64,000 nucleotides of DNA from Polyangiaceae bacterium (lineage in GTDB: Bacteria; Myxococcota_A; Polyangia; Polyangiales; Polyangiaceae), in assembly GCA_947475525.1 (NCBI GenBank), contig CANJMI010000012.1, forward strand, positions 1-64,000, in the 5' to 3' direction. The stretch's first letter is position 1; each line of letters starts with the position of its first letter. Below are positions 8,417-15,995 of the stretch, piece after piece. Position numbers and translations under genes: made by a program. Below the pieces are notes generated by a model. The model did no database searches, was not told the origin of the DNA, and saw only the letters and a program-made list of their open reading frames with translations.

Positions 8417-10447
8417 TCACTTGCAGGGCGTGCCCAGCGCAGCGGGCGCGACGACCTGCGCAACGCCGTCTTCGAACTCGGTCTTCGCGAAGCAGCTAAA
8501 CTGGTGGCGCACCCGATCGTCGTGGCTGTAGAGGGCGTGCGGATCGTACCCCTCGACGTTGTACGTGACGACCGCCCCGGTGAACTTCTCACCGTTTTCC
8601 GAGGTGAGGTTCTGCACGACCGGGTACCCAATCGACTGACCGCGCCCGTCGAGCGCCATCGCCGCCGCGAGCTCCGGCCATGCCGGCTCACCTGCGAGCT
8701 CGATGCCGTAGGCGAGCTCCACCGCCTCGTACGTTGCGTTGGAGAAGTAGCTGTCGCCCTCCCCGACCGGCGTGTAGATCGACCGCGCTGGCATACCGGG
8801 CAGCGGACGCAGGCCGATTCGCGGCTGCCCGGTGATCGGATCCGCCGGTTCGAGTGTCGCCTCGGCGAGCGCCGCCGTTGGATGAAAAATCGTGAGCGGC
8901 TCGTAAACCCCAAACAAGATCGGGCCTAGTCCCTTGGCGACCTTGCCGATCGTCGTCTGCTTGGGACCCGTCGTGGTGAGAAACAGCGTGAGGTAGCCGC
9001 CGGCCCCGGTGGGCACGACGGCCGTCATGCGAGGCTCGATCGGGGCTATCAAATTCGTGTACCAGGCGCCCATCGACTGCCCAGCCCCGATGAGCTTGGC
9101 CGGGTCGAAGTTGAACGCAGTCGCGTTTTGCGGGAGCGCGGGACCGTTGCACCCGGCGAGTAAGGCCGGAGAAATTTGGAGCGTCTTTAGCGCATCGAGC
9201 AGCAGCGCGGATTCGATCACGCCCTGGCGAAAAATGTCGCGGGTCGCCGGAATGTTGTTCGCGTTGACGTAAGCCTGAGGCGACGCGCCCGGTAGCCGCT
9301 CGGGGTTTACCGGCATCGCGCTGCCCGCGACCGCGATGCCCAATGGCGCGAGGTAGTGCGCAGGTCCGGCCCCTTTGCGTGGCATGTCGTCGTCGCCGAG
9401 CGGCGAGAGCAGCGCGTAGCTGTAACCTCCCGAGCCATGCACGAAAAGCTCGAGCGGGTAGCCCGCCGCGGGCATCACCTGTTTCGGAATCGCGATGACG
9501 ACGGGCGCGCGCTCAACGCGCTGCTGAACGGGCAGCCCATCCGCGCCGAGCACAAACAGCCCTTCGGTGTTGTAGGGCGGCATGCCCTGCTGAAACTGGG
9601 GGTAATCCACATGCCCCTTCAGCACGCACAAACTCGGATAGTCATCGGTCGCGTCGAGGGTCAGCCCGTCGATCGTGACCGCATGCGCGGCACGCATTTT
9701 CGTTACGAGTTCGAGATTTTCTCGCTGCACGTCACCCGTTGTAAACACCGTCGCGGCCGCGACATCGGTCCGCGCAATCGCGAGCATGTCGAGGGTCTCC
9801 CAGAGTGGCGCGTACACCGTAGCGGCCGCGGCGCCACGCGCTCCCGCCGGAGCACTGCCAGCGGCCAACGCAGCCAATCCCGCGGGTACCCCAAGACGTC
9901 GGCCGGCCGCGTCCGCAAACGCTCGGAGGACGACGACGGCGTAGCGATGGTCACCGCGGAGGACGAAACCTGGGCGGGCCGCGACCGCGAGGAGGTGCTC
10001 GGGGACGTAGTCATCTACGGTTGGCGTCATCGCGACGGTCGGCAACAACTTGCCGCGCTCGGGCGAGTTCGGGTCGATGTCGATCAGCAAGACGGACGAG
10101 GTCACTTCAGCCGGGATCACGGCGGCGGAGTCCACGGCTGCGAGCGGCGCGTCGAACTGAAAGTACGCAACGGGCAAAACCGAAGCCCCTCGACGGTCTT
10201 TTACCGCCGCCTTCAAGAGCTCGATCGTCGGCTTCTTCGTCGGATTCGGAAACCCCGAAAAATCGGCGGCGCCGTTCGCGTCCACGCGCAGATCGGACGG
10301 TTGCGGGAACGAGAAATAAGACCCTTCCGCCGCAAAGTCAGCGTCGAGTTCGAAGCGCACGGTGGCACCGCGCGGCTCCTCGGTTGCTGGGGACGAACAG
10401 CCGTAGCCAACGAATACGCTCAGCGCCAACGCTCGAAAGAATTTCAC
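8417..10447 (-). CDS. Lipase-like alpha/beta-hydrolase lipoprotein
   Basis: A 676-residue protein starting at a GTG, with a lipoprotein signal (SVFVGYGC, Cys17). The N-terminal ~300 residues resemble the N-terminal domain of large bacterial extracellular lipases. Around residue 337 the HG oxyanion turn (LFVHGSGG) begins an alpha/beta-hydrolase fold, and the nucleophile elbow GAGQSMG puts Ser458 at the active site. A C-terminal Asp and His should complete the triad (one candidate is DPHALYSHDD near the end). It probably hydrolyses esters at the cell surface; the substrate is unknown. The Hsp70 gene follows 52 bp downstream on the same strand. Confidence 0.72.
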   Translation of the reverse strand: MKFFRALALSVFVGYGCSSPATEEPRGATVRFELDADFAAEGSYFSFPQPSDLRVDANGAADFSGFPNPTKKPTIELLKAAVKDRRGASVLPVAYFQFDAPLAAVDSAAVIPAEVTSSVLLIDIDPNSPERGKLLPTVAMTPTVDDYVPEHLLAVAARPGFVLRGDHRYAVVVLRAFADAAGRRLGVPAGLAALAAGSAPAGARGAAAATVYAPLWETLDMLAIARTDVAAATVFTTGDVQRENLELVTKMRAAHAVTIDGLTLDATDDYPSLCVLKGHVDYPQFQQGMPPYNTEGLFVLGADGLPVQQRVERAPVVIAIPKQVMPAAGYPLELFVHGSGGYSYALLSPLGDDDMPRKGAGPAHYLAPLGIAVAGSAMPVNPERLPGASPQAYVNANNIPATRDIFRQGVIESALLLDALKTLQISPALLAGCNGPALPQNATAFNFDPAKLIGAGQSMGAWYTNLIAPIEPRMTAVVPTGAGGYLTLFLTTTGPKQTTIGKVAKGLGPILFGVYEPLTIFHPTAALAEATLEPADPITGQPRIGLRPLPGMPARSIYTPVGEGDSYFSNATYEAVELAYGIELAGEPAWPELAAAMALDGRGQSIGYPVVQNLTSENGEKFTGAVVTYNVEGYDPHALYSHDDRVRHQFSCFAKTEFEDGVAQVVAPAALGTPCK

Positions 10448-13008: not shown

Positions 13009-13899
13009 TCAGGGACGCTTCCACTGCGCCGGATCGTACGCCATCGGGTCGCCGACGACCTCGACGGTGCGGAGGACCTCCTCGTCGACACGGATCGAGG
13101 TGTTTTTTCGCGCATCCTCGAGGAAGCGCGCGCGTGCGGCTTCGTAGCGCTGCTGCATCAAAAAGCGCCGAATATTGGCTTCTTCGCTGGCGAGCGAACG
13201 TGTCTGAGCCGCCGACCGGCCGACGTACGCGACGAGCCAGTAGCGGCCTTCGTGTTCAACCGGCTCGGACACGGCACCCACCTCCGCCAATTCAAACACC
13301 GCGGTGGCGAACACCGCCGGCACACGGCTTCCCGTTGCCGCGACCACTCCGTTCGGCTCCAGCGCTGGCCGGGGCACCGAGCCGAGATCCTGCGAACTCG
13401 CAAGCGGCGCCCGGCGAGCGTTGAGAGCCAGCTGGCGCGATGGAAAGTACGCGACGGCAAGGCGGCGAAGCTCGGGTGTCGAGTAGCGGTCGAGGTGCTC
13501 CCGGTAGTAACGGTCGATGTCCGCGGCGCTGATCGAGTCAATCGACGGAAGTTGTGCCGCGAGGTGCTCGAGTTCGAGCTCGGCGACGGCCGCCGCGAGC
13601 GCAGCGCCTGCAGCGGGAGAGGCACCAAATCCGCGTTTTCGCACCTCGGCGGCCAAGACTTCACGGTCGACGAGCTCGCGAAGAACGCGCGCGGTCGCGG
13701 CGGCGTCCTTGGGACGTTGGCTCTCGGGCAACTCGGCGATGCGACGCCCAAGATCGGCGGTGGTGATGGGTCGTCCATCGACGACTGCGAGTGGGCGTGC
13801 GTCAGCGAGCGGCAGAAATGCGCGTTCGTCGCATGCCGATAGGGCGATGGCGAGACCGACAGCGAGACCGAGCGTAGCGGTGGATAGGTGGCCCTTCAT
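13009..13899 (-). CDS. Lipoprotein PPIase of the SurA/PpiC parvulin type
   Basis: A 296-residue lipoprotein: MKGHLSTATLG start, hydrophobic core and lipobox ALSAC with Cys23. The N-terminal part (about 45-150) matches the SurA/PrsA chaperone region (VVDGRPITTADLGRRI, LRELVDREVLAAEVRKRGF, IDRYYREHLDRY). The parvulin-like part follows (about 150-240), and the end is helical. Such proteins isomerise prolyl bonds or chaperone outer-membrane and secreted proteins. Several parvulin active-site residues are not obvious, so chaperone activity may dominate. It diverges from the lipoprotein at 13959 with a 59-bp gap that must hold both promoters. Confidence 0.75.
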   Translation of the reverse strand: MKGHLSTATLGLAVGLAIALSACDERAFLPLADARPLAVVDGRPITTADLGRRIAELPESQRPKDAAATARVLRELVDREVLAAEVRKRGFGASPAAGAALAAAVAELELEHLAAQLPSIDSISAADIDRYYREHLDRYSTPELRRLAVAYFPSRQLALNARRAPLASSQDLGSVPRPALEPNGVVAATGSRVPAVFATAVFELAEVGAVSEPVEHEGRYWLVAYVGRSAAQTRSLASEEANIRRFLMQQRYEAARARFLEDARKNTSIRVDEEVLRTVEVVGDPMAYDPAQWKRP

Positions 13900-13958: not shown

Positions 13959-15995
13959 ATGCAACGTCGTTCCCTTTGGCTGACTTTATTCGCAAGCTGC
14001 GCGATGGCGCTCTTTGCATTCCAAGGCTGCAGCGCCTCGAGCCGAAGTAAGTTCGGCGGCAGCGGCTCGACTGCCACCACCTCCAGCGACGGCGCAGGCG
14101 GTGATTGCCTTCTCTGTGGAACCGGCGGCGGAACCGGCGGAGACCAAGCCGGCGTCATCTTCGTCACGCCCGCGGTCTCGAGCCTCGCCGTGACCGGCGG
14201 CGTCATCCCGACCCAGCAATTTACGGCCAAACTGAACGGCGCGGACGTGTCGAACAACGTCACCTGGGTCGTCGAAAAGCCCGACATGGCGGCCATCACC
14301 GCGACGGGACTCTTGGCGCCCACCGGGAAGGTCGGCGGCGAAACCAAGATCCTCGCGCTTTACGGCACCTCGAAGGGCGAAGCGGTCGTCACGATCACGG
14401 TCGACGTCCTGGTCAACACCGCAAACGTGAGCGCGAGCGACCAGCAGCTCCTCGACAACGCCGTCAAGAGCGACCCAAACTTCGTGTTCACCTACCCGCT
14501 CGCTGACACCATCGTTCCGCTCCGCGTGCTCTCGCCCGAGTTCATGTGGCAAAACTCCAAGTCCGTGCAGGCGTATCGCCTCCGCCTGTCGTCGAAGAAC
14601 ATCACCTACACGGAGTACTTTACCGCAGCAAATCCCGGCCTAAAGGCGCTCCCGCAAGAGCTTTGGGAGAACATTCAATTCTCCGGCATGGGCCCCGTCA
14701 GCGATCCGCTGAAGGTCGAGCTCTCGCGGCTCTCGAACGGGCAAGCCGACGCAAGCGCTCCGCTCAGCTTCGGGATCGCCCAGGGCTTCATCTTCGGCAG
14801 CGTCTACTACTGGCAGCTTCCGTCTGGCCAAGGTGGTGGCAGCAGCAACGGCAAGGTGCTCCGCATCAAGCCGAGCTCCGACCAGACCGACGACTTCTTC
14901 CAGAGCGGGAACTGCTTCGGCTGCCACAGCGTCAGCCGCGACGGCACGAAGATGATGGCGACGTTCGAGATTGGCGGCTTCAACGGCTTTCCTCAGCAGC
15001 TGATCGACCTGACGACGAACCCCGCTAAGCTCGGGACGATTCAGAGCGCCACAGGCATTACCGGCGTCTTCTCGGCGTTCAATAACGACGGGACCAAAGT
15101 CGCCATCTCCAACAATTATTCGGGCTCGAAACCGGCGCAGATGTCGTCGATCGACATCATCGATGGCGTGACCGGTCAGCAGATCCTACCGAGCGCCATG
15201 CCAGCCGGCTGCGGCGAGCCCGCATGGTCGCCGGACGGCAAGATGCTCGCCGGGATCTGCGGCATGAACGACGGCGGAGGCTGGACGTTCGACTCGAACA
15301 ACGGCGATCTCACCGTCGCGGAGCTGAATGCGACGCAGGACCAGGTGGTCAGCTCGAAGGGCATCGTCCCGAAAGGCAACCTCCAAGGACGACCGGCCTA
15401 CCCAACCTTCACGCCGGACTCGAAGTACCTCGCATACGGGCGCCCCACCAGTGGCTCACGCTCGAGTGGCAACGGGACGCTGTGGCTGACGGACGTCGCC
15501 GGGATGAGCCCCATCGAGTTGAAGAAGGCAAGCGGCGATGGCCGCAGCTTCAACCCTGTGTTCGCGCCGAAATCCGCGGGCGGGTACACGTGGATCGTCT
15601 TCATATCGAAGCGGGACTACGGGCACAAACTCGTCAACAGCGGGATCCAACAGCTCTGGATGGTGGCGATCGACGATCCGCCGCAGCCCGGCGTCGATCC
15701 TTCCCATCCACCGTTTTACCTGCGCGGTCAGATCCCGAATCAGTTCAGCGAAAACGCGTATTACGCGCTCGACCCGTGCAAGAAGGACGGCGAGTCATGC
15801 GAGCACGGCATCGAATGTTGCAACAAGAGCTGCATCTACGACGACGGCCAGAAGAAGCACATCTGCAAGCCGCCCGAAGGTGGCAACTGCATCCCGACCG
15901 GTAGCGGACCGTGCAAGACCGACGTGGACTGCTGCGACTTCAAGGATGACGTCGTCTGCTTGAACGGCTTCTGCGAACTCAAGCCGCCGATCTGA
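13959..15995 (+). CDS. Lipoprotein with c-heme motif, PD40 propeller and twin cystine-knot-like tail
   Basis: A 678-residue lipoprotein (FQGC, Cys24). Residues ~66-135 look like a bacterial Ig-like (Big2) domain. A single CxxCH (CFGCH, 319-323) is a c-type heme site. Residues ~325-600 carry WD40-like PD40 blades (AFNNDGTKVAISN, PAWSPDGKMLAG, PTFTPDSKYLAYG). The last ~70 residues hold 12 cysteines as two modules, each in the order C-C-CC-C-C: C-x6-C-x5-CC-x3-C-x10-C, then C-x7-C-x5-CC-x7-C-x4-C. That is the inhibitor-cystine-knot spacing type. It would act at the outer membrane or surface; the reaction is unknown. A stable hairpin follows at 16009. Confidence 0.72.
   Translation: MQRRSLWLTLFASCAMALFAFQGCSASSRSKFGGSGSTATTSSDGAGGDCLLCGTGGGTGGDQAGVIFVTPAVSSLAVTGGVIPTQQFTAKLNGADVSNNVTWVVEKPDMAAITATGLLAPTGKVGGETKILALYGTSKGEAVVTITVDVLVNTANVSASDQQLLDNAVKSDPNFVFTYPLADTIVPLRVLSPEFMWQNSKSVQAYRLRLSSKNITYTEYFTAANPGLKALPQELWENIQFSGMGPVSDPLKVELSRLSNGQADASAPLSFGIAQGFIFGSVYYWQLPSGQGGGSSNGKVLRIKPSSDQTDDFFQSGNCFGCHSVSRDGTKMMATFEIGGFNGFPQQLIDLTTNPAKLGTIQSATGITGVFSAFNNDGTKVAISNNYSGSKPAQMSSIDIIDGVTGQQILPSAMPAGCGEPAWSPDGKMLAGICGMNDGGGWTFDSNNGDLTVAELNATQDQVVSSKGIVPKGNLQGRPAYPTFTPDSKYLAYGRPTSGSRSSGNGTLWLTDVAGMSPIELKKASGDGRSFNPVFAPKSAGGYTWIVFISKRDYGHKLVNSGIQQLWMVAIDDPPQPGVDPSHPPFYLRGQIPNQFSENAYYALDPCKKDGESCEHGIECCNKSCIYDDGQKKHICKPPEGGNCIPTGSGPCKTDVDCCDFKDDVVCLNGFCELKPPI

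What the first reader, a model, noticed from the sequence alone, without database searches (positions are those of the whole stretch)
13959..15995. Two inhibitor-cystine-knot-like modules on a c-heme, propeller lipoprotein
The last ~70 residues carry 12 cysteines as two modules in C-C-CC-C-C order (spacings 6-5-0-3-10 and 7-5-0-7-4). That is the cysteine pattern of knottins, mainly known from eukaryotic toxins. They are joined to a Big2-like domain, one CxxCH heme site and PD40 blades. The combination is unusual and suggests a surface redox or binding protein with protease-resistant tips.
Basis: partly seen in the sequence, partly recalled or inferred. Interest (0 to 1): 0.6.

Follow-up and report, generated by a model that had tools for sequence, protein, structure and literature searches.

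The report
Bacterial propeller protein with knottin-like tail
A myxobacterial cell-envelope protein ends in two small disulfide knots predicted to fold like those of spider toxins; it belongs to a large unnamed protein family of this bacterial group, so the pattern is real, but what the knots bind and whether the protein carries heme are still untested.

Summary
Observation confirmed: a 678-residue lipoprotein with 12 tail cysteines at the stated spacings, one CxxCH, a Big_2 domain and a TolB-type propeller. Folded alone, the tail reaches pLDDT 86; its structural matches are individually weak, but 21 of 32 are knottins and 5 are Dkk4 or colipase. Shuffling the residues between the cysteines loses most of the sequence similarity to double-knot toxins.

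It is not a one-off. The propeller-CxxCH core occurs in at least 231 of 371 Myxococcota genomes, and the two-knot tail in at least 92 of 283. Relatives have no tail, one knot, 8-11 knots or DNDCDG repeats instead. Other proteins carry up to 17 knots.

Heme is unproven. The Cys-Cys-His triad is kept in 122 of 122 sequences, but 14 have CX3CH, no distal ligand is conserved, and the model puts the motif in a strand.

Best reading: an outer-membrane lipoprotein with a fixed propeller site, to which Polyangia added disulfide-locked, probably ligand-binding knots. A new variant of a known kind.

The parts
13959..15995 (+). whole gene, 678-aa lipoprotein
   Evidence: ORF and translation; 92 distinct relatives read
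13959..14030 (+). signal peptide ending in lipobox Cys24
   Evidence: sequence; Cys24 in 83 of 88 relatives
14031..14150 (+). Gly/Ser/Thr-rich linker, residues 25-64
   Evidence: pLDDT mostly under 50 for residues 20-60
14151..14423 (+). Big_2 Ig-like domain, residues 65-155
   Evidence: Pfam Big_2 22.9 bits vs cut-off 22.8; family profile hits solved Big_2 domains of Lig proteins
14436..14858 (+). beta-rich domain without a Pfam name, residues 160-300
   Evidence: pLDDT mostly 91-98; no Pfam match there
14859..15770 (+). TolB-type beta propeller (PD40), residues 301-604
   Evidence: PD40 27.6 bits; TolB 2hqs_A Z 25.9, 3.0 A over 272 residues
14913..14927 (+). CxxCH motif, residues 319-323, at the start of a PD40 blade
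   Evidence: Cys-Cys-His kept in 122 of 122 sequences read; CX3CH in 14 of the 88 rows of A1
15777..15866 (+). knot module 1, residues 607-636 (C-6-C-5-CC-3-C-10-C)
15888..15974 (+). knot module 2, residues 644-672 (C-7-C-5-CC-7-C-4-C)

Best explanation
An N-terminally lipidated, probably outer-membrane and surface-exposed protein: flexible linker, Big_2 domain and a second beta-rich domain as a stalk, then a TolB-type propeller with an invariant Cys-Cys-His site at the start of a blade, then two tandem inhibitor-cystine-knot-type domains at the very C-terminus. The propeller site is the ancestral constant part, probably a covalently bound heme c (inferred, about 0.6). The knots are an appendage of Polyangia, expandable from one to many copies, and most likely a disulfide-locked ligand-binding head (inferred). 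Shown here: architecture, conservation, tail swapping, predicted folds. Inferred: lipidation and surface display, heme, ligand binding.
For: Full model pLDDT 88.5, tail blocks 84-96. Tail alone pLDDT 86.2, pTM 0.66; of 32 Foldseek matches at E <= 10, 21 are ICK/knottin peptides by my recalled classification and 5 are Dkk4 or colipase; VIA-align 1.1 A over 32 residues to knottin SOTI-III (4aoq_E), 0.7 A over 27 to U3-scytotoxin (5fzv). Sequence profile of 83 tails finds double-knot toxins Xt3a (E 3e-4) and Hi1a (1.8e-3) and Dkk4 (5.9e-3). With the same 36 rows, real tails give 25 PDB hits, best 0.0032; Cys-fixed shuffles give 7, best 0.11. Core in at least 231 of 371 genomes, tail in at least 92 of 283. 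Tail types differ on a fixed core: none, one knot, two, arrays, DNDCDG. Non-Cys tail residues are under purifying selection: tail dN is lower than propeller dN in 5 of 6 close pairs.
Against: No Foldseek match reaches E 0.001; the best is 0.34, and the highest Z is 3.2; the tool warns that such Z may mean only a common arrangement. Disulfide pairing was not measured. In mid-range pairs (propeller identity 0.45-0.65) the mean tail identity falls below the propeller's, so tail constraint is not exceptional. No ligand, partner or conserved gene neighbourhood was found; the divergent PpiC gene was seen only within the genus. CX3CH, the strand position and the lack of a conserved second ligand weaken the heme part.
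Confidence: 0.5

Rival explanations
1. The knots are only a structural cap or protease-resistant end of the propeller, without a specific ligand.
For: The tail starts right after the last propeller strand and can be absent or replaced by unrelated Cys-rich tails (DNDCDG repeats, 4-Cys tails) on the same core. At mid-range divergence the tail is kept no better than the propeller.
Against: Tail-less relatives do without a cap: 20 of 30 distant ORFs. Arrays of 8 and 11 knots on the propeller (L223, L228) exceed what a cap needs. Within the genus, non-Cys tail residues are kept at least as well as the propeller in 9 of 10 pairs.
Confidence: 0.3
2. CxxCH is not a heme site but a cysteine/histidine metal site or a structural element of the blade.
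For: 14 of 88 aligned sequences have CX3CH, at least 3 changes of spacing on the tree (quick tree); this genome holds both forms. The model puts C322 and H323 in strand 320-325. No other His, Met or Lys column is invariant; the best is H583 in 68 of 88. PDB relatives found by sequence include no heme propeller that I recognise (best 60 of 96 shown).
Against: C-C-H kept in 122 of 122 sequences over the phylum, the exact c-heme signature in 108 of them. CcmF is present in this genome and in 217-224 of the 231 genomes with the core (7 of the 27 genomes without CcmF were not listed). That overlap is weak evidence, because genomes without the core have CcmF too (120-127 of 140).
Confidence: 0.38
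3. The knots are a secreted toxin-like effector cleaved from the lipoprotein.
For: Closest solved structures by sequence are venom double knots.
Against: The knots are C-terminal parts of lipoproteins with a conserved propeller, with no toxin gene neighbourhood seen; sequence similarity to toxins is marginal, and the tail of this protein stays under every Pfam toxin cut-off.
Confidence: 0.03

Closest known systems
Tandem inhibitor-cystine-knot peptides (Xibalbin Xt3a, pi-hexatoxin-Hi1a, DkTx)
   Same: two C-C-CC-C-C modules on a short linker; best sequence-profile hits in the PDB; fold matches include Xt3a and DkTx
   Different: here the C-terminal domain of a bacterial lipoprotein, not a free venom peptide; no activity known; homology not shown
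Dickkopf cysteine-rich domains / colipase fold
   Same: tandem ICK-like subdomains; Dkk4 is a profile hit at E 5.9e-3 with 83 rows, and colipases are among the fold matches
   Different: Dkk4 does not appear with the 36-row profile; Pfam Dickkopf_N 8.1 bits vs cut-off 25 for this tail
TolB (Tol-Pal propeller)
   Same: propeller fold, Z 25.9 to 2hqs_A
   Different: NCBIfam TolB 17.2 bits vs cut-off 343; lipidated, Big_2 stalk, Cys-Cys-His site, knots
TfcP, the noncanonical cytochrome c of Myxococcus xanthus (PMC8833165, passages read)
   Same: myxobacterial envelope protein with CxxCH and a presumably non-respiratory role
   Different: TfcP has a cytochrome c domain with a distal Cys; here the motif is in a propeller blade and no distal ligand is conserved

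Membership tests
Inhibitor cystine knot (knottin) fold | six Cys in order C-C-CC-C-C | tested here: met
   both modules; 87 of 90 tails have 12 Cys with C2-5-CC spacing in both modules, one has 14, two are arrays
Inhibitor cystine knot (knottin) fold | three-dimensional similarity to solved ICK peptides | tested here: met
   predicted model only; 21 of 32 matches are ICK peptides by recalled classification but none at E <= 0.001; Z up to 3.2, rmsd 0.7-2.1 A over 27-34 residues for several
Inhibitor cystine knot (knottin) fold | disulfides I-IV, II-V, III-VI forming a threaded ring | not testable with these tools
   model coordinates not available; needs mass spectrometry or a structure
Dickkopf N-terminal domain (PF04706) | Pfam gathering score | tested here: not met
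   8.1 bits vs 25 for this tail; among array relatives only L228 passes (39.9 bits, no single stretch passing alone)
c-type cytochrome | CxxCH motif | tested here: met
   C319-C322-H323; 14 of 88 aligned relatives have CX3CH
c-type cytochrome | cytochrome c maturation genes in the genome | tested here: met
   CcmF_C E 6.9e-44; three Cytochrom_C_asm hits
c-type cytochrome | conserved distal axial ligand | tested here: not met
   no other invariant His, Met or Lys column; H583 in 68 of 88. Five-coordinate hemes exist, so this is not decisive
c-type cytochrome | bound heme | not testable with these tools
   needs purified protein
TolB (TIGR02800) | NCBIfam equivalog cut-off | tested here: not met
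   17.2 bits vs 343
Big_2 (PF02368) | Pfam gathering score | tested here: met
   22.9 vs 22.8 bits, barely

The most novel reading that the evidence does not exclude
Polyangia hold a bacterial repertoire of tandem knottin domains, 1 to 17 copies per protein, that works as expandable recognition heads on surface lipoproteins and shares descent with the single-knot ancestor proposed for Dickkopf and colipase domains.
Probability: 0.1. Interest if true: 0.8.

Novelty: new variant of a known kind. Interest (0 to 1): 0.5.

Why it matters
Knottins are studied as eukaryotic toxins, inhibitors and Wnt antagonists. A bacterial class with one to seventeen tandem knots, attached to a propeller with an invariant Cys-Cys-His site, gives a prokaryotic reference for how tandem knots arise. 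It makes a published proposal testable, that Dickkopf and colipase domains arose by duplication of a single-knot ancestor (PMC6078440, passages read), and offers a new source of disulfide-locked scaffolds. The same core with CX2CH and CX3CH in one genome is a natural test of how strictly heme attachment reads the spacing.

Tried and rejected
Toxin reading: rejected, see rivals. Operon logic: the divergent PpiC gene (13012-13899, -) was found beside the gene in 3 same-genus relatives (L005/L037, L006/L034, L008/L036) and in none of the other loci L002-L037 within the flank held; L007/L035 end near the gene, so cannot tell. Plasmid and phage carriers: no match. PHROGs: none. NCBIfam on 83 tails: one weak hit in one member. 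Fast-evolving recognition loops: not supported; loops are under purifying selection in close pairs and unremarkable at mid range. HZS alpha-type heme: that heme has His587 on zinc and Tyr591 as ligand (PMC12607021, passages); the corresponding +4 position here is Arg327, so no direct model. Viral structure library: no match at E <= 0.001; baculovirus conotoxin-like proteins among weak hits. Literature: searches gave no paper on myxobacterial knottins among the papers listed (15 of 59 and 12 of 515 were listed; the rest were full lists); that is not proof of absence, and subscription journals and preprints are not held. CX3CH heme search 70: no paper.

Limits: genomes outside the phylum were not searched, so the range of the tail beyond Myxococcota is unknown. 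Searches scored at most 20 and about 4 candidates per genome, so their counts are lower bounds. Homology with animal knots could not be told from convergence. The tree is a quick one with long branches meeting; counts of changes are minima on it.

Full report
CHECK. The ORF 13959-15995 (+) encodes 678 residues. Pfam gives PD40 (27.6 bits, cut-off 20.9) and Big_2 (22.9, cut-off 22.8) and nothing else at E <= 10. The protein starts with a signal peptide and a lipobox cysteine (Cys24), kept in 83 of 88 relatives. Residues 20-60 are mostly disordered in the model.

FAMILY. This genome (5.15 Mb, 59 contigs) has three copies. A profile of the tail finds only these three at E <= 1; two more matches at E 1.08 and 7.73 are noise level. 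Of 59 related genomes 47 have a match at E <= 1e-5. I read 92 distinct ORFs, taking the best loci and 60 further places picked mainly because they reached the tail. Of these 92, 88 have the two-knot tail (87 with exactly 12 Cys, L079 with 14), two have arrays (L082, L087) and two have DNDCDG repeats instead (L086, L091). The selection means this ratio is not a frequency.

WIDER RANGE. With less selection, the propeller core (alignment A3) occurs in 231 of 371 Myxococcota genomes at E <= 1e-15 and the tail (A2) in 92 of 283 at E <= 1e-6; both are lower bounds because few candidates per genome were scored. By kinship, 85 of the 92 tail genomes lie in the window's class and 7 in other classes. 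I re-searched 28 genomes, mainly with weaker core matches, and read the 30 of 45 matches that had loci: all 30 keep CxxCH; 20 have no tail, 5 two knots, 1 one knot, 2 DNDCDG-type repeats, 2 a four-Cys tail. So the Cys-Cys-His propeller is the constant part and the tail is a swappable appendage. On a quick tree of 122 core sequences, knot versus no knot needs at least 3 changes, six tail types at least 8, CX2CH versus CX3CH at least 3 (three rows without a spacing label there are CX2CH; the script labelled L198 'otherCys').

THE KNOTS. AlphaFold2 of the full protein: pLDDT 88.5, pTM 0.87, tail blocks 84-96. Tail alone: pLDDT 86.2, pTM 0.66. Foldseek against the PDB gives 32 matches at E <= 10, none at 0.001: 21 ICK/knottin peptides (my recalled classification), 4 colipase chains, Dkk4, one other inhibitor and 5 unrelated. 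VIA-align gives Z 3.2 at most, with 1.1 A over 32 residues to the knottin SOTI-III and 0.7 A over 27 to U3-scytotoxin. Z is low because the domains are tiny; the result is a consistent list rather than a strong single match. By sequence, the 83-row profile finds Xt3a (3e-4), pi-hexatoxin-Hi1a (1.8e-3) and Dkk4 (5.9e-3) among 43 hits at E <= 10. Control with the same 36 rows: real tails 25 hits, best 0.0032; Cys-fixed shuffles 7 hits, best 0.11. Dkk4 is absent from the 36-row list. So non-cysteine residues contribute, but this does not separate descent from convergence. Pfam toxin models match many tails below cut-off strength (Conotoxin_I2 57 of 83 and Dickkopf_N 39 of 83 at E <= 0.1) and pass the cut-off on 5 of 9 array proteins, partly by summing repeats.

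ARRAYS. In other genomes of the order knots occur in tandem: 17 modules in 616 residues (L227), 15 in 568 (L225), 11 in 520 (L132), and propeller-CxxCH proteins with 8 (L223) and 11 (L228) knots instead of two (module counts are by regular expression). I did not find these described (searches in Tried and rejected).

THE CxxCH. Cys, Cys and His are kept in 122 of 122 sequences (88 in A1, 4 left out of A1, 30 distant). Fourteen have CX3CH. In the model F320-V325 is a strand at the start of a PD40 blade, not a helical turn, and no second ligand column is invariant. CcmF is in 344 of 371 genomes, including this one. Of the 231 genomes with the core 217-224 have CcmF; of the 140 without the core 120-127 do (ranges because 7 of 27 genomes without CcmF are not listed). 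That is compatible with heme but hardly discriminating. I hold heme at about 0.6. Precedent for non-respiratory c-heme in myxobacteria is TfcP (PMC8833165, passages).

SELECTION. Leaving out shared cysteines, the tail is at least as conserved as the propeller in 9 of 10 same-genus pairs, and tail dN is lower than propeller dN in 5 of 6 pairs, the exception being L035-L036 (dS is near saturation). At mid range the tail falls below the propeller on average. The loops are thus constrained but not specially so.

MECHANISM. Best supported: a lipid-anchored stalk carrying a TolB-type propeller with a fixed site, and a disulfide-locked C-terminal head. Lipidation and surface exposure follow from the lipobox and linker (inference). 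A binding role for the knots is inferred from their position, copy-number expansion and constrained loops; the main rival is a plain protective cap (0.3). Which ligand is unknown.

NOVELTY. The parts are known kinds; the bacterial tandem-knot family, its swapping on a conserved propeller and the CX2CH/CX3CH switching appear undescribed in what I could search. New variant of a known kind, interest 0.5.

Noticed in passing
L227:1296-3143, L225:184-1887, L132:343-1902: Proteins with 17, 15 and 11 tandem knot modules by pattern, no CxxCH; L225 passes Pfam Conotoxin_I2 at E 1.6e-18.
   Followed up: partly
L223:2-2812, L228:1732-4839: CxxCH propeller proteins with 8 and 11 knots instead of two.
   Followed up: partly
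L003 (G000 contig C4:29542-31176) and 13 other relatives: CX3CH instead of CX2CH at the same site; at least 3 spacing changes on the tree, both forms in this genome.
   Followed up: partly
L086, L091, L198, L221: Same propeller core ending in DNDCDG-type Cys/Asp repeats in place of knots.
   Followed up: partly
window 13012-13899 (-): Divergent PpiC/SurA-like lipoprotein gene next to the finding; kept beside it only within the genus as far as the flanks show.
   Followed up: yes
window 14436-14858: Confidently predicted beta-rich domain (residues 160-300) without any Pfam match.
   Followed up: no
window 8417-10447 (-): 676-aa putative lipoprotein without a Pfam match at E <= 0.001.
   Followed up: no
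G022 contigs C1:7877-9220 and C3:1902120-1903463: Two copies of one knot-array locus with identical scores, suggesting a duplication or an assembly repeat.
   Followed up: no
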